From positions 1 to 32,979 of the forward strand of contig JAHBWO010000038.1 of the NCBI GenBank assembly GCA_019636945.1: DNA of 32,979 nt. Direction: 5' to 3'. The notes below the pieces were generated by a model that worked only from the letters and a program-made list of their open reading frames with translations, was not told where the DNA came from and did no database searches. Numbering within the stretch: the first letter of the stretch is position 1; every line of letters starts with the position of its first letter. Source of the stretch: Nitrospira sp. (GTDB lineage: Bacteria > Nitrospirota > Nitrospiria > Nitrospirales > Nitrospiraceae). A program made the position numbers and the translations under genes. Of the stretch, positions 19,523 through 29,044 are shown one piece after another.

Positions 19523-22500
19523 ATGGTCATCACGCGTAGGCAGTTCATGAAAGCTTCTGCCGGCACGATCGCTGCCATAGCTGTGGCGGACAAAGTTCTG
19601 GCATTGACGGCGCTTCAGCCGGTAATCGAGGTCGGCAACCCCTTGGGGGAGTATCCGGACCGATCCTGGGAACGGGTCTATCACGACCAATATCGGTACG
19701 ATTCATCGTTCACATGGGTCTGCTCCCCTAACGACACGCACGCCTGCCGCATTCGAGCTTTCGTCCGCAACGGAGTGGTGATGCGGGTCGAACAGAACTA
19801 CGACCACCAGACCTATGAAGACTTGTATGGAAACCGCGGGACCTTTGCGCACAACCCTCGAATGTGTCTCAAGGGATTTACCTTCCATCGGCGCGTCTAC
19901 GGGCCGTATCGCTTGAAGGGTCCCTTGATCCGGAAGGGCTGGAAACAGTGGATGGATGATGGCTCACCCGAACTCACCTCGGACACGAAGCGCAAGTATA
20001 AGTTCGACAGCCGGTTCTTGGACGATATGCTCCGGGTCTCCTGGGATACGGCCTTTACCTATGCAGCGAAGGCCATGATCATCATTGCCACCCGATACAG
20101 CGGGGAAGCTGGGGCGCGGCGTCTTCGTGAACAAGGGTATGCCCCCGAGATGGTGGAAATGATGAAGGGCGCGGGTGTGCGCTGTTTCAAGCACCGAGCC
20201 GGCATGCCCATTCTCGGATTCATCGGCAAACATTCCAATACCCGGTTCAATAACAGCGTCCTGCCTGTATTGGATACGTGGATCCGCAAGGTCGGTCCGG
20301 ATCAGGCGCAAGGCGGCCGGTATTGGAACAACTACACCTGGCATGGAGACCAAGATCCCTCCCAGCCATTTTGGAACGGGACGCAAAATTGCGACGTAGA
20401 TTTGAGCGATATGCGATTCACGAAGTTCAACACGAGCTGGGGCAAGAATTTCGTCGAGAACAAAATGCCGGAAGCGCATTGGAAGCTCGAATCAATCGAG
20501 CGAGGGGCGCGCCTCGCGGTGATCACGCCGGAGTACAATCCCACGGCACAGCGCGCCGATTACTGGATTCCCCTTCGCCCGCAGTCGGACGGGGCCTTTT
20601 TCCTCGGCGCCTGCAAGATCATTCTCGATGAGAACATGCATGACATCGACTATCTCAAGCAGTTCACGGACATGCCCTTGTTGGTCCGCACGGATACCCT
20701 CCAGTATCTGGACCCCCGTGAGGTGATCCCGAACTACAAGTTCCCTGATTTCTCCCACAGTTATTCCGGCCGAATCCAAGCATTGAAACCAGAGTACATC
20801 GAACGGTTAGGCGGGTTCATGGTGTGGGATCTGGCCAAGCAGCAAGCCGTCCCGCTCCATCGTGAGCAGGTTGGCTGGCATTTCGATAGCAGCGGCATTC
20901 AGCCGGCATTGACCGGAACCTATCGAGTTAAGCTGTTGAACGGACGCGAAATCGATGCGCAGCCCATCTACCAGATGTATCAGATCCACTTCCAAGACTA
21001 TGATCTCGATACCACGCATCAGATCACCCGCTCGCCCAAGGATCTCCTGGTCCGCTGGGCGCGCGACTCAGGCACGATTAAACCGGCGGCCATTCACAAC
21101 GGCGAGGGGGTCTGCCACTATTTTCATATGACCTCAAATGGACGGGCGGCCGCCTTGGTCCTGACCTTGACCGGCAACATTGGAAAGTTCGGTGCCGGCT
21201 GCCATACCTGGTCCGGCAATTACAAAGTGGGGATTTGGAATGCGACGCCCTGGTCGGGGGCTGGGGGCGGCGTACACTTATCGGAAGATCCCTGGCAGCT
21301 CAATCTGGACCCGAATGCCCATGGGAAGGAAATTAAGTACAAGAACTACTACTATGGCGAAGAGCCTGCGTACTGGAATCACGGTGATACGGCGTTGATC
21401 GTCAATACCCCGAAGTATGGCCGCAAGGTCTTTACGGGGAAGACCCATATGCCGACCCCCAGTAAGCTGCGCTGGGTCGTCAACGTCAACCTGTTGAACA
21501 ATGCCAAGCACCACTACGACATGGTGCGGAACGTCGATCCCAACATCGAATGTCTCATCACGCAGGACATCGAAATGACGTCCGACGTCAACCATGCGGA
21601 TATCGCCTTTGCCGTGAACTCCTGGATGGAGTTCACCTATCCTGAAATGACGGCTACCGTGTCGAATCCCTGGGTACAGATCTGGAAGGGGGGGATCCGG
21701 CCGCTGTACGACACGCGGAACGATGCCGATACGTTTGCCGGGGTGGCGGCCCGACTGGCCGAGATCACGGGCGAGAAACGCATGCGAGACGTCTTCCACT
21801 TTGTCTATGAGAATCGCGTGGACGTCTACGCCCAACGTCTCCTGGATGCGTCGAGCACCTTTTACGGATATAGTGCTGATGTGCTCTTGAAGTCGGAAAA
21901 GGGGTGGATGGTCATGGTGCGGACCTATCCGCGTCACCCCCTCTGGGAGGAGACCAACGAGTCGAAGCCAATGTGGACCCGATCGGGGCGCATCGAGAGC
22001 TATCGGGTTGAACCGGAAGCGATCGAGTACGGAGAAAACTTTATCTCGCATCGTGAAGGGCCGGAAGCAACACCGTATCTGCCGAACGCCATCTTCACGA
22101 CCAACCCCCATGTTCGGCCGGACGACTATGGCATTCCGGTCACGGCCCAACACCACGACGACAAAACTATCCGGAACATCAAGCTCTCGTGGGCTGAAAT
22201 CAAGCGCCACACCAACCCTCTGTGGGAGAAGGGCTATCAGTTCTACTGCGTCACCCCGAAGACCCGTCACCGCGTTCACAGCCAATGGTCGGTGAACGAC
22301 TGGGTACAGATCTACGAGTCGAACTTCGGTGATCCCTATCGCATGGATAAACGGACGCCAGGAGTCGGCGAACACCAGGTGCACATCAATCCCCAAGCAG
22401 CCAGAGATCGCGGCATCAATGACGGGGACTATGTCTATATCGATGGAAACCCGGTGGATCGTCCGTATCGTGGATGGAAACCGAGTGATCCCTACTACAA

Positions 22501-22960
22501 AGTGGCTCGACTCATGATCCGCGCCAAGTACAACCCGGCCTATCCGTATCACGTGACCATGGCGAAGCATGCGCCGTACGTCTCAACGCCAAAGTCGGTC
22601 AAAGGACACGAGACGAGGCCAGATGGACGTGCCATTGCCATCGACACCGGGTATCAGTCGAACTTCCGATACGGTGCTCAACAGTCATTTACGCGCAGCT
22701 GGCTCATGCCGATGCATCAAACCGATTCGCTCCCGGGGAAAAGTGCAAACGGGCTTAAGTTTAAATGGGGGTTCGAAATCGACCACCATGCAGTCAACAC
22801 GGTGCCGAAGGAATGTCTCATCCGTATTACCAAAGCGGAGGACGGCGGGATCGGGGCACGCGGTCCCTGGGAGCCGGTGCGTACCGGATTTACCCCGGGC
22901 CAAGAGAACGAGTTCATGATTAAGTGGCTGAAAGGCGAGCACATCAAGATCAAGGTCTAA
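19523..22960 (+). CDS. nxrA: Nitrite oxidoreductase alpha subunit (molybdopterin)
   Basis: A 1145-residue type II DMSO-reductase-family protein of the length usual for Nitrospira NxrA. It oxidises nitrite to nitrate at a Mo-bis-MGD centre. The N-terminus has a twin-arginine motif (TRRQFMK, residues 4-10) and a hydrophobic stretch to about 30, indicating Tat export with NxrB to the periplasmic side. The proximal Fe-S cluster region shows Cys67, Asp71, Cys75 and Cys115. The probable Mo ligand is Asp276 in NNYTWHGDQDPS, by alignment with NarG. Start ATG is preceded by GGGAGG. It is followed by nxrB after 89 bp containing a hairpin. No chaperone or gamma subunit gene adjoins it. Confidence 0.96.
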   Translation: MVITRRQFMKASAGTIAAIAVADKVLALTALQPVIEVGNPLGEYPDRSWERVYHDQYRYDSSFTWVCSPNDTHACRIRAFVRNGVVMRVEQNYDHQTYEDLYGNRGTFAHNPRMCLKGFTFHRRVYGPYRLKGPLIRKGWKQWMDDGSPELTSDTKRKYKFDSRFLDDMLRVSWDTAFTYAAKAMIIIATRYSGEAGARRLREQGYAPEMVEMMKGAGVRCFKHRAGMPILGFIGKHSNTRFNNSVLPVLDTWIRKVGPDQAQGGRYWNNYTWHGDQDPSQPFWNGTQNCDVDLSDMRFTKFNTSWGKNFVENKMPEAHWKLESIERGARLAVITPEYNPTAQRADYWIPLRPQSDGAFFLGACKIILDENMHDIDYLKQFTDMPLLVRTDTLQYLDPREVIPNYKFPDFSHSYSGRIQALKPEYIERLGGFMVWDLAKQQAVPLHREQVGWHFDSSGIQPALTGTYRVKLLNGREIDAQPIYQMYQIHFQDYDLDTTHQITRSPKDLLVRWARDSGTIKPAAIHNGEGVCHYFHMTSNGRAAALVLTLTGNIGKFGAGCHTWSGNYKVGIWNATPWSGAGGGVHLSEDPWQLNLDPNAHGKEIKYKNYYYGEEPAYWNHGDTALIVNTPKYGRKVFTGKTHMPTPSKLRWVVNVNLLNNAKHHYDMVRNVDPNIECLITQDIEMTSDVNHADIAFAVNSWMEFTYPEMTATVSNPWVQIWKGGIRPLYDTRNDADTFAGVAARLAEITGEKRMRDVFHFVYENRVDVYAQRLLDASSTFYGYSADVLLKSEKGWMVMVRTYPRHPLWEETNESKPMWTRSGRIESYRVEPEAIEYGENFISHREGPEATPYLPNAIFTTNPHVRPDDYGIPVTAQHHDDKTIRNIKLSWAEIKRHTNPLWEKGYQFYCVTPKTRHRVHSQWSVNDWVQIYESNFGDPYRMDKRTPGVGEHQVHINPQAARDRGINDGDYVYIDGNPVDRPYRGWKPSDPYYKVARLMIRAKYNPAYPYHVTMAKHAPYVSTPKSVKGHETRPDGRAIAIDTGYQSNFRYGAQQSFTRSWLMPMHQTDSLPGKSANGLKFKWGFEIDHHAVNTVPKECLIRITKAEDGGIGARGPWEPVRTGFTPGQENEFMIKWLKGEHIKIKV

Positions 22961-22976
22961 ATGCTATTGATTTGAC

Positions 22977-23010
22977 CGTCGGCCCTTGCCACAAGAAGCA
23001 AGGGCCGACG
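22977..23010 (+). promoter_or_regulatory. Intercistronic hairpin between nxrA and nxrB
   Basis: A perfect 13-bp stem (CGTCGGCCCTTGC and GCAAGGGCCGACG) with an eight-base loop lies 17 bp after the nxrA stop and 39 bp before the nxrB start. No T run follows, so it is unlikely to be a full terminator. It could protect the nxrA transcript end, allow processing or adjust the subunit ratio. Confidence 0.75.
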
Positions 23011-23049
23011 AAGTTCGACAATAGCCTATGATGAATTACGGAGGAGACT

Positions 23050-24339
23050 ATGCCTGAAGTATATAACTGGCAGCTGGGACGAAAGATGTTGTATCCCTAC
23101 GAGGAGCGGCATCCCAAGTGGCAGTTCGCCTTTGTGTTTAATATCAACCGCTGCTTAGCGTGCCAGACCTGTAGTATGGCGGATAAGTCGACCTGGCTCT
23201 TCTCGAAGGGGCAGGAGTACATGTGGTGGAACAATGTGGAGACCAAGCCCTATGGCGGCTATCCCCAGTTCTACGACGTCAAGATTACGCAGTTGATCGA
23301 GCAGGTGAATCCCGGCGGACAAGTCTGGAACGTCCGCGTGGGACGGAAGCACCATGCTCCGTACGGGGTGTTTGAAGGGATGACGATTTTCGACGCAGGC
23401 GCCAAGGTCGGGCAGGCGGCGATCGGGTACATTCCAACCGACCAAGAATGGCGGTTTGTGAATATCTATGAAGACACCGCCACCTCCATGCGTGCGCTGG
23501 TGGAAGGCATCGACAAGACCGGGTTCTCACGGGACGAACCCTGGAAAATGACCGGCAGCAGCTTGCCGGAGCATGAGACGTTTTTCTTCTATCTGCAACG
23601 CATCTGTAATCATTGCACTTACCCTGGCTGCTTGGCTGCGTGCCCAAGAAAGGCCATCTATAAGCGTCCGGAAGACGGGATCGTCCTCATTGACCAGAAT
23701 CGCTGCCGTGGCTACAAGAAGTGCGTCGAACAGTGTCCCTACAAAAAACCAATGTATCGTGGGACGACCCGGGTCAGCGAAAAGTGTATTGCCTGCTATC
23801 CTCGGATCGAAGGAAAAGATCCCTTGACCGGTGGGGAACCGATGGAGACCCGTTGTATGGCGGCCTGTGTCGGAAAGATCCGGATGCAGAGCTTGATGCG
23901 CATCGGCGAGGATGGCCTATGGGCCGAGGATCGTTGGCATCCCCTGTACTACGCGATCCGGGTCGAACAGGTCGCGTTGCCGCTCTATCCCCAGTGGGGG
24001 ACGGAGCCCAACGGGTTTTACATTCCGCCTCGGCACTCGCCGCGTGGCTATGCCCGCCAGATGTTTGGTCCTGGCGTGGACAACGCGATTGAAAAGTACT
24101 TGGTGCCCAGCCGCGAGCTGTTAGCGGTGCTCCAGCTCTGGAGGGCCAGCCAGCAGATCGTGTTCCGCTACGATGTGATCCCTGGGCCGAAAGTGTTTGA
24201 GACCCAGATCCACGGGAAGCGATTTGAGATGTATAACGACACGGTCCTGGGCTTCAATAAGTCCGGGAAGGAAGTGGCTCGGATTCAAGTGGAAGAGCCG
24301 ATCTACATCCGGCCGGCCGAACGGGTCACCTGGCTGTAA
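23050..24339 (+). CDS. nxrB: Nitrite oxidoreductase beta subunit (iron-sulfur)
   Basis: A 429-residue electron-transfer subunit related to NarH, of the standard Nitrospira length. Cysteine groups for four Fe-S clusters are visible: Cys35, Cys38, Cys41 (RCLACQTCSMADKSTW); Cys186, Cys189, Cys194, Cys198 (CNHCTYPGCLAACP); Cys219, Cys225, Cys229; and Cys246, Cys249, Cys269, Cys273. It passes electrons from NxrA to the gamma subunit/cytochrome chain. It has no signal peptide and should be co-exported with the Tat-bearing NxrA. ATG at 23050 follows GGAGG. It ends just before a strong intrinsic terminator, so the operon is only nxrAB. Confidence 0.96.
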   Translation: MPEVYNWQLGRKMLYPYEERHPKWQFAFVFNINRCLACQTCSMADKSTWLFSKGQEYMWWNNVETKPYGGYPQFYDVKITQLIEQVNPGGQVWNVRVGRKHHAPYGVFEGMTIFDAGAKVGQAAIGYIPTDQEWRFVNIYEDTATSMRALVEGIDKTGFSRDEPWKMTGSSLPEHETFFFYLQRICNHCTYPGCLAACPRKAIYKRPEDGIVLIDQNRCRGYKKCVEQCPYKKPMYRGTTRVSEKCIACYPRIEGKDPLTGGEPMETRCMAACVGKIRMQSLMRIGEDGLWAEDRWHPLYYAIRVEQVALPLYPQWGTEPNGFYIPPRHSPRGYARQMFGPGVDNAIEKYLVPSRELLAVLQLWRASQQIVFRYDVIPGPKVFETQIHGKRFEMYNDTVLGFNKSGKEVARIQVEEPIYIRPAERVTWL

Positions 24340-24511: not shown

Positions 24512-24925
24512 TGGCCTATGCTTCGGCTTTTGCTGGTAGGAGCGCTGAGCCTGTCTCGTTTTCCGGTGCTGGAGCCGATTGATGTTCTGTGGCGATCAGC
24601 AGGTAGAACACCGGGACCACAAAGAGGGTAAAGAGGGTGCCGACCGTCATGCCGGTGACGAGCATCATACCGATGCTATTACGAGCCGCAGCCCCAGGCC
24701 CTGAGGCGAGCACCAGGGGAAAATGGCCGAAGATGGTGGCGGCTGAAGTCATCAACACCGGTCGAAGTCTGGTTAACGAGGCTTCGCGGATGGCGGCAAG
24801 TCTCGGCAGCCCTCTGGTCTGTAGCTGATTGGCAAACTCCACAATGAGAATCCCGTTCTTGGCGATGAGGCCGACCAATGTAATCAGCCCGACCTGAGAA
24901 TAAATATTGATGGTCGTCAGATCGA
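24512..24925. repeat. Right copy of direct repeat flanking the nxr module
   Basis: Gapless partner of 16543-16956 at an offset of 7969 bp. Here the sequence is the natural 3' end of the intact RND gene and continues into it without a break. It starts at the last codons and stop of the gene. Confidence 0.9.
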
Positions 24926-27614
24926 GAAAGCTGACCACCAACGCGCCGGAGATGGCGAGCGGGACCGAACCAAGGAGTACGATCAGCGGATCCCGGAAGC
25001 TTTTGAACTGGGCGGCCAGGACCAAATAAATCAGGACGACGGCAAAGCCCAGGGTAACGGTGAGAGCTGCCCCTTCCTGACGGAGCTGGCGCGATTCGCC
25101 GGCATAGTCGAGGATGATCCGTGGGCCGACCGCCATCGCGGCCTCTTCGAGCACCCGCAGGCCTTCTTCTTTGGTGACGCCCGGTTTGAGCCCACCGAAG
25201 ATGCGGACGGCGTCCCGCTGCTGGAAGCGGTTCAAGCTGCGTGGCGCTGTGCTCGTTTCGATGTGAGCGAAGGTTGAGACCGGCACCAACTGGCCGCTTG
25301 GCGTCTTGATCTTCAAGTCCAGTAGCGGGTCGATCGTGGCGCGGTCTTTGTCGCCGAGTTGTGGGATGACTTTGTAGCTCCGGTCGAAGTAGTTGAATCG
25401 GTTGACGTAGGCCCCGCCGAGCATGGTGCCCAGCTCACGGCCGACTCCGGCTAAATCGAATCCCAAGTCTGCGAGCCGCTCACGATCCAGCACGACCCTG
25501 GCTTGCGGGAGGTCGATCTTGAGGTCGGTGTCCACGTAGAGGAACTTTCCGCTCTGCCAGCCTGCACCTAAGAGGGTACCAACGGTTTCAAGGAGTTGTT
25601 CAGCGGGCGCGTCGGATTCAAGAATTAGCTCGACGTCGTATTGTCCCGGAGTCGGAAGCGGTGGATCGAGTCGGGGGAAGACCCGCAATCCCGGGACTTG
25701 AGAGACCGCGCCATACACGTCGTTGTACATGCCTTCCGTCGAGCGGGCTCGATCGTGCCAATCCTTCGCGACGATCCCGCCGAATCCGCCCCATGCGGTG
25801 GTGAGCGACCAGGTGTAGTCTGTTTCAGGGATGGCGGTAATTGCTTTGACGATCTGGAAGTGTTGACGGTTCGTCGCATGCACCGTGGAATCCGGTGAGG
25901 CCTCGAAGAAGAGACTGATGTGGTTCTGGTCCTCTACGGGAGCCAGCTCCTGACGGGAAAAGTGATAGAGCGGCCAGGCTGCGATCATGATGAAGACGGC
26001 AGCCGCCACGATTCCTCCGTTCATTGTGAGAGCGCCATCAAGCAGTGTGGCATAGAGTCTCCGCGCTTCTTCGAACCGTCGGTTGACGAACGCGGTCAAT
26101 CGACCTTCTTTGCCCTGAGGATGGACAAATCGTGAACTCATTACAGGCGAGAGCGTGATGGCGACGACCCCGGACAAGACCACGGCGACGGCCAGTGTGA
26201 TAGCAAATTCGAGGAACAGGGATCCGGTGAGCCCTCCCTGAAAGCCGATGGGCGCATAGACGGTGGCGAGGGTGATGGTCATGGCGATGATAGGACCAAG
26301 CAGTTCACGTGCGGCTGCTCGTGCGGCTTCAATTCTGGATTTGCCAAGACGCACGTGCCGTTCCACGTTCTCCACGACGACGATGGCGTCGTCCACAACC
26401 AGCCCAACGGACAACACAATCGCGAGTAGCGTGAGCAGATTGAGGCTGAATCCAAAGGCGGTCAGGAAGAGCGCGGCTCCGATCAACGAGACCGGTATCG
26501 CCACCAACGGGACAAGTGCCGTGCGGACTGATCCCATGAAGAGAAATACCACCACGGCGACGATCAAAATTGTCTCGGACAGCGTCTTGGAGATTTCCGT
26601 CAGCGCGTTTCGGATGAACATGGTGCTGTCCCAGACGAGTTTCATGTCGATATCGCTCGGCAACGTCCGACGAATTCGGTCAACCTCGTCGCGCAGGCGG
26701 TGCCCGACCTCGATCTCGTTGACGCCGGGGACCGCCCAGATACCGAGGTACACGCCTTCCGTTTCGTCGTATTTGGCGATGATGTTCGCTTCTTCCGCTT
26801 CACGCTCGACCCGCGCCACATCCCTCAGCCGTACGATGGCACCGTCTCGATCGGCGATGATCAATTCCTCAAATTCCGTTGTTGAGCGCAGATCGGTATT
26901 GGCGAGTAAATTAATCTGGACCTGATTGCCTTTCGTGCGGCCCACGGCGGCGAGGTAATTATTTCGCCGAAGGGCGCCTTGGACATCGCCGGGGGAGAGA
27001 TTGAATGAGGCCAGACGATCGGGGTCGATCCAAATCCGCATCGCGATCTGCCGTTCACCTTCGAATGTTACCCGTTGGACCCCGGGTAATGTGGCCAGTT
27101 GTGGTTGCAATGTGCGAAGGAGCCAATCGGTGACGGCTGGAACCGCGCGCTCCTGTGAGCTGAAGCTGAGATAAAAGGAGGCATAGGGACGATCTGCCCG
27201 CTGTATTTCAATCGCAGCCGGTTCAGCTTCCGGCGGCAGTTCCGCCCGCACCTGTTGCAGTCGTGCCGTGACTTCGGCCAGGGCAGCGGTGCTGCTGTGG
27301 TTCAATTTCAAGTGGACGGTCACGGTGCTGACACCGGACCGACTGGTCGATTCGACGTAATCGACGCCACTGATCGCCGAGACCACTCGCTCGATCGGGG
27401 TACTGATAAATCCACGAACGGTTTCGGCACTGGCTCCGTAGTAGACGGTCGTGATCACCACCAGGGAGTTCTCGATCGTGGGATACTGCTGGACCGGGAG
27501 CGCGGTCAATGCCTTCCATCCCGCGAGGAGGATCACCAGGTTGACGACGATGGCCAAGACCGGATGGACGATGAAGATGTCAGTGAAAACTCTGGTGGTG
27601 ACTGGCTGCTTCAT
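24516..27614 (-). CDS. RND multidrug efflux permease (HAE-1/AcrB-like)
   Basis: A 1032-residue inner-membrane pump with the 12-helix RND layout. The proton-relay pair Asp408-Asp409 is present in TM4 (VGLVVDDAIVVVENVERH), and IAKNGILIVEFANQLQTRG marks TM10-11. Periplasmic porter loops lie at about 40-335 and 560-860. It works as a trimer using the proton gradient, with the adaptor encoded just upstream; the outer-membrane factor is not in this window. Sequence segments such as PVQQYPTIENS and GASAETVRGFISTPIE place it in the hydrophobe/amphiphile branch near MexF/MdtB types. The start lacks a strong ribosome site, so coupling to the adaptor gene is likely. Its 3' end is duplicated on the other side of nxrAB. 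Confidence 0.95.
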   Translation of the reverse strand: MKQPVTTRVFTDIFIVHPVLAIVVNLVILLAGWKALTALPVQQYPTIENSLVVITTVYYGASAETVRGFISTPIERVVSAISGVDYVESTSRSGVSTVTVHLKLNHSSTAALAEVTARLQQVRAELPPEAEPAAIEIQRADRPYASFYLSFSSQERAVPAVTDWLLRTLQPQLATLPGVQRVTFEGERQIAMRIWIDPDRLASFNLSPGDVQGALRRNNYLAAVGRTKGNQVQINLLANTDLRSTTEFEELIIADRDGAIVRLRDVARVEREAEEANIIAKYDETEGVYLGIWAVPGVNEIEVGHRLRDEVDRIRRTLPSDIDMKLVWDSTMFIRNALTEISKTLSETILIVAVVVFLFMGSVRTALVPLVAIPVSLIGAALFLTAFGFSLNLLTLLAIVLSVGLVVDDAIVVVENVERHVRLGKSRIEAARAAARELLGPIIAMTITLATVYAPIGFQGGLTGSLFLEFAITLAVAVVLSGVVAITLSPVMSSRFVHPQGKEGRLTAFVNRRFEEARRLYATLLDGALTMNGGIVAAAVFIMIAAWPLYHFSRQELAPVEDQNHISLFFEASPDSTVHATNRQHFQIVKAITAIPETDYTWSLTTAWGGFGGIVAKDWHDRARSTEGMYNDVYGAVSQVPGLRVFPRLDPPLPTPGQYDVELILESDAPAEQLLETVGTLLGAGWQSGKFLYVDTDLKIDLPQARVVLDRERLADLGFDLAGVGRELGTMLGGAYVNRFNYFDRSYKVIPQLGDKDRATIDPLLDLKIKTPSGQLVPVSTFAHIETSTAPRSLNRFQQRDAVRIFGGLKPGVTKEEGLRVLEEAAMAVGPRIILDYAGESRQLRQEGAALTVTLGFAVVLIYLVLAAQFKSFRDPLIVLLGSVPLAISGALVVSFLDLTTINIYSQVGLITLVGLIAKNGILIVEFANQLQTRGLPRLAAIREASLTRLRPVLMTSAATIFGHFPLVLASGPGAAARNSIGMMLVTGMTVGTLFTLFVVPVFYLLIATEHQSAPAPENETGSALLPAKAEA

Positions 27615-27640: not shown

Positions 27641-27724
27641 CTTAGCTCATATTACTCATGACGGTTCGTCGAAACAGCGGATCGGCGATTGCAGTAGAAG
27701 TGTTCATGAATAATGTGAGTTAGG
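27641..27724. repeat. Palindromic element with 21-bp arms between MFP and RND genes
   Basis: CTTAGCTCATATTACTCATGA (27641-27661) and TCATGAATAATGTGAGTTAGG (27704-27724) are inverted arms. They differ at four positions, all transitions, three or more of which can still pair as G-U in one RNA strand. The right arm contains the MFP stop codon. The arm recurs once more at 29024-29044. Confidence 0.65.
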
Positions 27725-28838
27725 GCTGTGCCTGCGTCGCTGGATGCTGGGGTGGCGATGCAATCGTGACGAGCACGCCGTCACGAAGCTTAAATGACCC
27801 GATCGCGGCGACCTGTTCTCCCACGGTAAGCCCTTCATGAATGACGATGTCGTCACCGGACATCGGTCCAGTCTCGACTTGGCGCGCACGGACTCTCGTC
27901 TGGCCGTCTTGGCCCTGCGCGAGGACAAACACCTGATCACCTCCAGGTCCCTTCCGAAGCGCGCTCACGGGAATTGCGACGACCTTGCGCATGGCACCAA
28001 TGGGAATCCGAACCCGCACAGATGATCCGGGAGTCGGTACATCGCTGTTCCCCGCGATCCTGGCGCGGACCATGGCATTTCTGGTTGTGGGGTCCACACG
28101 AGCATCGACGGCGACGATTTTGGCCGTGACGGACGGGGCCGTCGCGGACGACAAGATCTCAACGGCCTCGCCGACCTGCAACCCTCCAGCCACCTGTTGC
28201 GGGACGGCAAAATCCACATTCACGGCTTCGCCCACTCCTTGGAGTGTGGTCAAGAGTGTTCCCTCGTCTAGGTACTGACCGGGGTGGACATCCGCGATTC
28301 CGACCCTGGCTTTGAATGGGGCGCGGATGGTTTTTTTCGCGATGACGGCCTTGGTCCGAGCGATTTGGGCCTGGGCCACGTCCAAGTCGGCGCGTGCCCG
28401 ATCCACTTCCTCTTGCGTGGTGGCAAGCTCCTGACTGAGATTCTGCCGGCGATGAAGAATCGTTTTCGCGAGTGCCACTTGAGCTTCCTGTGCGCGCAGG
28501 TCTGCTTCCTCGACCGAGACATCGAGGGCCACCAGTAGTGTTCCGGCTTCCACGATTTGCCCTGGGGTAAGGCGGACTTCGCGGACCGTACCGGCTAATT
28601 CGTTCTTCAGCGAAATCGAGCGAAGCGCCAGAACGGTTCCGATCGATGTGGTGTGCGGTCGATGGTCGATCGTTCGTGCGACAGCGACCGTGACGGTCTC
28701 GCTCGGTTCCGGCTGATTGGCTGAAGCGGCCTGTTCAGTTTGCAGGGATCCATATTTCCACGAGGCTAATCCGATCCCGAGGAGGATGACAAACAGAACA
28801 AGAACGATCGATCCAATCCAATTCTTAGGGGTCATCAT
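27720..28838 (-). CDS. RND periplasmic adaptor (membrane fusion protein)
   Basis: About 372 residues of the HlyD/AcrA-type adaptor. Residues 8-27 form the membrane anchor (GSIVLVLFVILLGIGL). Then come barrel-lipoyl strands (TSIGTVLALRSISLKNELAG, TVREVRLTPGQIVEAGTLLV), an alpha-hairpin with DLRAQEAQVALAKTILHRR, and the second lipoyl half (IRAPFKARVGIADVHPGQYL), ending in a membrane-proximal domain. It links the RND permease to an outer-membrane channel. The start near MMTPKNWIG is chosen because homologous sequence begins there; no strong ribosome site is visible. It is upstream of the permease by 105 bp containing a palindromic element. Confidence 0.9.
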   Translation of the reverse strand: MMTPKNWIGSIVLVLFVILLGIGLASWKYGSLQTEQAASANQPEPSETVTVAVARTIDHRPHTTSIGTVLALRSISLKNELAGTVREVRLTPGQIVEAGTLLVALDVSVEEADLRAQEAQVALAKTILHRRQNLSQELATTQEEVDRARADLDVAQAQIARTKAVIAKKTIRAPFKARVGIADVHPGQYLDEGTLLTTLQGVGEAVNVDFAVPQQVAGGLQVGEAVEILSSATAPSVTAKIVAVDARVDPTTRNAMVRARIAGNSDVPTPGSSVRVRIPIGAMRKVVAIPVSALRKGPGGDQVFVLAQGQDGQTRVRARQVETGPMSGDDIVIHEGLTVGEQVAAIGSFKLRDGVLVTIASPPQHPATQAQP

Positions 28839-28871
28839 ATCGGTCACGATGCTATGGTACCACAATAAAGT

Positions 28872-28883
28872 GTGCCATGGCAC
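28872..28883. promoter_or_regulatory. Perfect 12-bp palindrome upstream of the adaptor gene
   Basis: GTGCCATGGCAC lies about 34 bp before the MFP start, in the place expected for a repressor operator. No regulator gene is adjacent and the palindrome is short. Confidence 0.3.
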
Positions 28884-29023
28884 GTTTCTTCTCGGACTAT
28901 CGGCGGGGAGTTGTGTGACAGCTTGCCCGGAGGTGGCGATCAGCTTTCGATAGACTGAGAATAGGTGTGTCGACGTCACACACGAGTGAATCGATGATCA
29001 ACAGCATGGAGGAGACAGGAGAG

Positions 29024-29044
29024 TCATGAATAATGCGGGTTAGG
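29024..29044. repeat. Solo copy of the 21-bp palindromic-element arm
   Basis: TCATGAATAATGCGGGTTAGG matches the right arm at 27704-27724 with two differences. As there, it contains the stop codon of a minus-strand gene, in this case the small lipoprotein. No inverted partner was found nearby. Confidence 0.6.

What the first reader, a model, noticed from the sequence alone, without database searches (positions are those of the whole stretch)
27641..29044. 21-bp palindromic element placed on stop codons of two genes
A paired element (27641-27724) and a solo arm (29024-29044) share TCATGAATAATG. In both cases the repeat contains the stop codon TAA of a minus-strand gene. The arm differences are transitions compatible with G-U pairing, as expected for an RNA hairpin or a REP/MITE-like mobile repeat.
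Basis: seen in the sequence. Interest (0 to 1): 0.55.

Follow-up and report, generated by a model that had tools for sequence, protein, structure and literature searches.

The report
Tiny jumping DNA in stop codons
The repeat is a short, gene-less jumping DNA element of Nitrospira bacteria that inserts at CTAG or a close variant, so it can land exactly in a gene's stop codon without harming the gene; a larger element with matching ends and its own transposase gene was found in two relatives.

Summary
Window 27643-27722 is an 80-bp inverted-repeat element with TTAG at both sides, and 29024-29043 is one further arm; each overlaps the TAA stop of a minus-strand gene. The genome has 38 arm matches (backward-pattern control 1), many in facing pairs. 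I collected 122 distinct paired elements from Nitrospira and relatives, mostly 194-195 or 215 bp. They behave as a MITE: relatives show empty sites, insertion is at a TA inside a CTAG-like (YTAR) target, and at least the TA is duplicated. In the window the target was the stop codon of an efflux-adaptor gene. Complete 1.7-kb elements with similar ends and an IS1380-family transposase occur in two relatives; none was found in the window's genome (88% complete). The REP/RAYT reading is not supported. Stop-codon placement follows largely from the target sequence: 31 of 86 elements lie exactly in a called stop codon, against 69 of 587 background CTAG sites, and a residual excess remains unexplained. 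Unexpectedly, the interior of the long forms, which the window copy lacks, is a strongly covarying rod with a one-strand G-U bias, so single-strand structure seems selected. Verdict: a new member of a known kind.

The parts
27643..27722 (+). 80-bp MITE copy, left end to right end on the + strand, interior core deleted
   Evidence: Facing arms, both subterminal sequences kept; orthologous copies in G006, G081, G011, G095
27642..27645 (.). Left flank of target, TTAG (YTAR); TA at 27643-27644
   Evidence: Same 4-mer as the right flank; family target YTAR
27646..27661 (+). Left terminal inverted repeat CTCATATTACTCATGA (consensus CCCGCATTATTCATGA)
27704..27719 (+). Right terminal inverted repeat TCATGAATAATGTGAG (consensus TCATGAATAATGCGGG)
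27720..27723 (.). Right flank of target, TTAG; 27720-27722 is the TAA stop of the efflux-adaptor gene on the minus strand
   Evidence: empty sites in L089-L091
27720..28865 (-). RND efflux periplasmic adaptor gene whose stop codon received the element (start site chosen by me; longest ORF runs to 28979)
   Evidence: TIGR01730 177.6 bits, cut-off 94.9; HlyD domains
24516..27614 (-). RND transporter gene next downstream on the same strand
   Evidence: ACR_tran E 6e-244
29024..29043 (+). Solo arm ending in TTAG; 29040-29042 is the TAA stop of the next gene
29023..29035 (+). 13 bases GTCATGAATAATG present in the window and absent from the close relatives; the following GGGTTAG is ancestral
   Evidence: alignment with L086, L087, L094
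29040..29435 (-). 131-aa ORF of no known family, its stop codon overlapped by the solo arm
   Evidence: no Pfam or NCBIfam match; conserved in relatives

Best explanation
The repeat is a non-autonomous transposable element (MITE) of Nitrospira, most likely moved by IS1380-family transposases acting on shared ends CCCGCATTATTCATGA...TCATGAATAATGCGGG. It inserts at a TA within YTAR, mostly CTAG, and at least the TA is duplicated. YTAR always contains TAA or TAG and is its own reverse complement, so an insertion at the last codon of a gene leaves that gene an intact stop, whichever way the element points. In the window one insertion hit the stop codon of the efflux-adaptor gene, and this copy has no interior; a second insertion at the stop of the 131-aa gene was later almost wholly deleted. 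Shown: the family, its ends, its target, empty sites, stop-codon placement, and an IS with similar ends and the same target. Inferred: that this IS type mobilises the MITE, and the insertion-then-deletion history of the solo arm.
For: 38 arm matches in the genome against 1 control; 28 of 59 relatives carry the arm, controls 0; 122 distinct paired elements with sharp size classes. Restored targets CTAG in 52 of 83, YTAR in 73 of 83, while CTAG is 547 of 18,295 background TA sites. Empty sites for three elements, one being the window's own site. No duplication outside the YTAR in 119 elements. Complete IS copies in L296 and L297 with ends 2-3 mismatches of 19 from the MITE arm and CTAG on both sides; transposase IS1380 family. 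Reference IS1380A also sits on a palindromic 4-mer. Stop-codon placement above background.
Against: No IS with matching ends was found in the window's own genome: its one IS1380-type gene has other ends. IS and MITE share only the terminal repeat, not the subterminal sequence (compare). Only one of the three empty adaptor sites (L091) has a YTAR stop; L089 and L090 have TGA. Flanking 4-mers are identical in 67 of 122, mean 55.9 and maximum 67 in 2000 shuffles, so whether 2 or 4 bases are duplicated is unsettled. A decayed copy lies beside the own-genome IS630 gene, though on one side only.
Confidence: 0.84

Rival explanations
1. REP/BIME elements moved by a REP-associated Y1 transposase (RAYT).
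For: The genome has three Y1 transposase genes, and one (C82) lies between two arms.
Against: That gene sits outside both elements; the C208 and C2 loci have only 5-6-mismatch matches. The elements are 80-341 bp with 16-bp inverted ends and a duplicated TA, unlike single REP hairpins (REP features recalled, not from a call).
Confidence: 0.03
2. A MITE moved by an IS630- or IS5-type transposase; both are known for CTAG/TA targets (recall; for an IS5-like MITE).
For: TA duplication within CTAG fits these families. A decayed element lies next to the own-genome IS630 gene.
Against: Neither the own IS630 copy nor any of 29 further IS630 loci has arms on both sides; 11 of the 29 show isolated matches with 4-5 mismatches. 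Two IS1380 copies do carry the ends. IS5-family genes were not searched.
Confidence: 0.1
3. The element is actively steered to stop codons or gene 3' ends, beyond its taste for CTAG.
For: Among non-genic sites elements are in stop codons more than CTAG sites are: odds ratio 2.7, p 0.0003; 2.8 and 2.5 at two stricter thresholds; 2.2-2.5 for CTAG-site elements alone. The gene end meets the right end in 44 and the left end in 19 of 115 ends each, p 0.002.
Against: The gene caller misses genes, which inflates the intergenic background; selection against promoter-side insertions would give the same excess; the orientation count contains orthologous copies and a scan biased to fresh right ends.
Confidence: 0.12
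4. A transcription terminator or mRNA hairpin kept at gene ends for its function there.
For: The window copy folds better than its shuffles on both strands (z -4.7 and -2.8).
Against: No terminator-like site was reported at the element. The strand that folds best is not the coding strand of the neighbours. Window-only mutations have weakened the arms, and relatives lack the element altogether.
Confidence: 0.05

Closest known systems
IS1380-family insertion sequences (IS1380A of Acetobacter pasteurianus as reference)
   Same: Candidate mobiliser: the full-length relative has an IS1380-family transposase (NF033539, 371 bits, cut-off 180; 39.5% identical to the IS1380A transposase over 92% of the query in two joined pieces). 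IS1380A copies also sit on a palindromic 4-mer, identical on both sides in 6 of 9 copies.
   Different: IS1380A uses mostly TCGA or TCAA and has other end sequences; the MITE has no gene.
TnRErm46 / ISRe46 of Rhodococcus equi (PMC6794481, passages seen)
   Different: A large resistance transposon of another IS type with other ends, not a MITE.
MITEPsy1 of Pseudomonas syringae (PMC3189936, passages seen)
   Same: 100-nt MITE with 18-nt inverted repeats, inserting after CTAG or YTAA with that sequence duplicated.
   Different: Other end sequences; thought to derive from ISPsy2 and listed as possibly IS5 family.
Correia/nemis and ERIC elements (review PMC10969869, passages seen)
   Same: Small inverted-repeat MITEs; Correia-containing transcripts can be cut by RNase III, and ERIC at gene 3' ends affects transcript levels.
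   Different: Other hosts; I did not compare their sequences or structures.

Membership tests
MITE | Short, many copies, no coding capacity for a transposase | tested here: met
   122 elements of 80-341 bp; no ORF analysis of the interiors beyond their length
MITE | Terminal inverted repeats | tested here: met
MITE | Target duplication and empty sites | tested here: met
   TA duplicated; three elements with empty sites, one of them less clean
MITE | Autonomous element with the same ends | tested here: met
   L296, L297 in relatives, 2-3 mismatches of 19 per end; not found in the own genome
MITE | Mobilised in trans by that element's transposase | not testable with these tools
   needs a transposition assay
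IS1380 family (the full-length relative) | IS1380-family transposase | tested here: met
   PF13701 E 3e-124 and 2e-121; NF033539 above cut-off
IS1380 family (the full-length relative) | Short palindromic target at the ends, as in IS1380A | tested here: met
   CTAG on both sides in two copies; IS1380A TCGA/TCAA
REP/RAYT | Y1 transposase gene flanked by the repeats | tested here: not met
   three Y1 genes, none so flanked
IS630-derived MITE | IS630 copy with the same ends | tested here: not met
   own copy and 29 further loci; the listing holds more IS630 matches than the loci fetched
Rfam RNA families | Match at gathering score | tested here: not met
   only one tRNA in 83,296 bases of the window and 18 loci

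The most novel reading that the evidence does not exclude
The long forms are a mobile structured RNA: the strand read from left to right end folds into a 57-pair rod that selection maintains across Nitrospiraceae, with compensatory changes and a bias to G-U over A-C on that strand. The folded strand would then have a task of its own, as a transcript that protects or regulates the element or its neighbours, or as a single-stranded form used in transposition, and the stop-codon target would let it spread almost without cost to the host.
Probability: 0.3. Interest if true: 0.62.

Novelty: new member of a known kind. Interest (0 to 1): 0.42.

Why it matters
It explains a puzzling repeat in stop codons by one simple rule: a transposase that prefers the self-complementary YTAR can use stop codons as safe sites. 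It ties a widespread Nitrospira repeat, whose end sequence is in none of the papers of the library searched, to IS1380. The covarying interior makes it testable whether a bacterial MITE is selected as a folded single strand and not only for its ends.

Tried and rejected
REP/RAYT: Y1 genes found but not flanked by the arms. Own-genome IS1380-type gene: no arm at up to 5 mismatches in its locus. Own-genome IS630 gene: a decayed element on one side, none on the other. 29 further IS630 loci: no paired arms, isolated 4-5-mismatch matches in 11. A 4-9-base duplication outside the YTAR, suggested by GCTG on both sides of the window copy: no signal in 119 elements. C201 against C212 as filled/empty pair: the second end has no clear arm, so not used. 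Rfam: only a tRNA. A 194-bp element against the plasmid collection: no match. Terminator: no terminator-like site at the element.

Left out before counts: one search used 230 of 244 ends (14 nearer than 330 bases to a locus end). Of the 93 elements from the 115 collection loci, one search used 83 with both ends usable and one search used 86. One search left out three orthologous copies of the adaptor-site element (119 of 122). One search aligned 70 of the 97 elements of 175-216 bp listed; the core model used 47 of those 70. One search looked for empty sites only in the loci held then.

Papers: seen as passages only: PMC3189936, PMC10969869, PMC10813416, PMC4133298, PMC6794481, PMC12542641. All others were seen in listings. 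No paper was read whole. ISfinder was not available.

Recalled, from no call: that IS630 and IS5 use TA/CTAG-type targets, the REP features, and that the 1145- and 429-aa proteins resemble nitrite oxidoreductase.

Full report
What is there. At 27643-27722 lies an 80-bp inverted-repeat element whose two sides read TTAG, and at 29024-29043 one further arm. Both overlap TAA stop codons of minus-strand genes: an RND-efflux periplasmic adaptor (TIGR01730) and a 131-aa ORF without a Pfam or NCBIfam match. The pattern with up to 3 mismatches occurs twice in the window, 0.01 expected.

A repeat of the genome and the group. The window's genome (4.36 Mb, 267 contigs, 88% complete) has 38 arm matches at up to 2 mismatches, 1 for the backward control; two contigs share an identical 2.2 kb, so this is slightly inflated. 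Eleven paired elements of this genome were aligned, 80 to 250 bp long; by eye ten share the subterminal sequences and one (C188) does not. Of 59 relatives, 28 have the arm at up to 1 mismatch, with no control match.

Anatomy. Among the loci held I found 122 distinct paired elements: 48 of 194-195 bp, 21 of 215 bp, five of 80-82 bp, the longest 341 bp. Four of the five short ones are orthologous copies of the window element. Left end: TAGCCCGCATTATTCATGACGGTTCGT..CGAAA. Right end: GCGGATCGGCGATTGCAGCAGAAG.G.TCATGAATAATGCGGGCTA. The window copy consists of these two ends without the interior.

Target and duplication. Restored targets are CTAG in 52 of 83 and YTAR in 73 of 83; CTAG is 547 of 18,295 background TA sites. 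No duplicated sequence lies outside (119 elements). Empty sites were found for three elements: L100 (187 bp) against L107, L111 and L113, each with a single TA; the adaptor-gene site against L090 and L091; and L224 against L080, less clean. Left and right 4-mers are identical in 67 of 122, against a mean of 55.9 and a maximum of 67 in 2000 shuffles. In the collection set the left end keeps G in 15 of 17 cases in which the right flank has A. So I claim only that TA is duplicated within a preferred YTAR. Of nine copies of the reference IS1380A, six have the same 4-mer on both sides, TCGA or TCAA, and three are mixed.

The window insertions. In L089-L091 (80-81% identity in the adaptor) no element is present; by eye the adaptor gene ends at the same place, 26 nt before the next ATG. 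The stop is TAG in L091 and TGA in L089 and L090. In the window and in G006, G081, G011 and G095 the element sits exactly in that stop codon. The solo arm is a 13-base gain (29023-29035) against three close relatives, while the GGGTTAG that holds the stop is present in them. Insertion followed by near-complete deletion is my inference.

Stop codons. With a simple codon-phase gene caller (coding fraction 0.76), 31 of 86 restored sites fall exactly in a called stop codon, 46 in gaps and 9 in genes; the background CTAG sites give 69, 281 and 237 of 587. The odds ratio is 2.7 among non-genic sites (p 0.0003) and 4.2 among all sites; two stricter thresholds give 2.8 and 2.5 among non-genic sites, and CTAG-site elements alone 2.2 to 2.5. 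A cruder ORF test points the same way (33 of 83 elements, 133 of 547 CTAG sites). The caller misses genes; at the threshold for which the window was printed it missed the 131-aa ORF. That inflates the background gaps, so the residual excess is no proof of targeting. The gene end meets the right end in 44 and the left end in 19 of 115 ends each (p 0.002); this count holds orthologous copies and the right-end bias of the scan.

The mobiliser. Copies at contig ends in G031 led to a longer element. L296 (G012) and L297 (G018) hold copies of 1697 and 1709 bp with an open transposase frame. Their ends are 2-3 mismatches of 19 from the MITE arm, with CTAG on both sides. The transposase is of the IS1380 family: PF13701 E 3e-124, NF033539 371 bits with cut-off 180, 39.5% identity to the IS1380A transposase over 92% of the query in two joined pieces. 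The similarity of IS and MITE ends is limited to the terminal repeat. The own genome has one IS1380-type gene, without these ends.

Structure of the long forms. For 70 aligned elements (66 distinct) a 57-pair rod has 96.2% standard pairs, 25 pairs with a change on both sides, and 285 doubly changed cells against a shuffled mean of 92.6 (0 of 500 reach it); slid versions give at most 46. On the left-to-right strand 186 G-U cells stand against 32 A-C cells; the reverse strand's own structure gives 83 against 61; the 31 pairs shared by both give 53 against 21 on the left-to-right strand; the folding energy is lower on that strand in 62 of 66. The sequences are related and the first structure was chosen on that strand, so the shared-pair figure is the fairest. 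A core model matched 41 of 198 genomes sampled from the phylum: 17 of the genus, 23 of other genera of its family, one of another family in the class; 7 matches are in the own genome. Ten matched loci were fetched. Nine show facing arms of this family; for the tenth, L313, my script's coordinate filter did not look in the right place, and one search lists arms on both sides of the core (G019:C25 372 and 546). The window copy has no core.

In print. No paper of the library holds the 13-base strings TGAATAATGCGGG or CCCGCATTATTCA; three hold the 12-mer TCATGAATAATG, with unrelated titles. Listings for Nitrospira with MITE and with IS1380 showed nothing on this family by title; one, PMC12542641, was checked by passages and is unrelated. 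Subscription papers and ISfinder were not searched. The stop-sparing use of CTAG is known from TnRErm46, and a CTAG/YTAA-duplicating MITE from MITEPsy1.

Verdict. A real and mobile MITE family of a known kind. Stop-codon placement follows largely from its target; the structure of the long forms, apparently selected on one strand, is the part that a specialist might not expect.

Noticed in passing
194-215-bp elements of L115-L229 and own loci (alignment A2): The interior is a covarying rod with compensatory changes and a G-U bias on one strand; absent from the window copy.
   Followed up: yes
L259-L268 (G021, G006, G031, G032): Arms with the variant TCGTGAATAATGCGGGCTA border elements with quite different interiors, so several MITE families seem to share these ends.
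   Followed up: partly
own genome L034, L039, L042, L046; also L079: A second kind of degenerate palindromic repeat (TTTCATGTTTCAGGTT...AACCTGAAACATGAAA) recurs beside or inside the elements.
   Followed up: no
L042 (G000:C82) 638-1126: IS200-type Y1 transposase gene with its own short GC hairpins, lying between two arms but outside both elements.
   Followed up: partly
L063 (G019): A left end is followed by an ORF that looks like a large ATPase; no right end within 1.5 kb.
   Followed up: no
window 19523-24339: ORFs of 1145 and 429 aa resemble molybdopterin and iron-sulphur subunits of nitrite oxidoreductase (recalled resemblance, not tested; ORFs).
   Followed up: no
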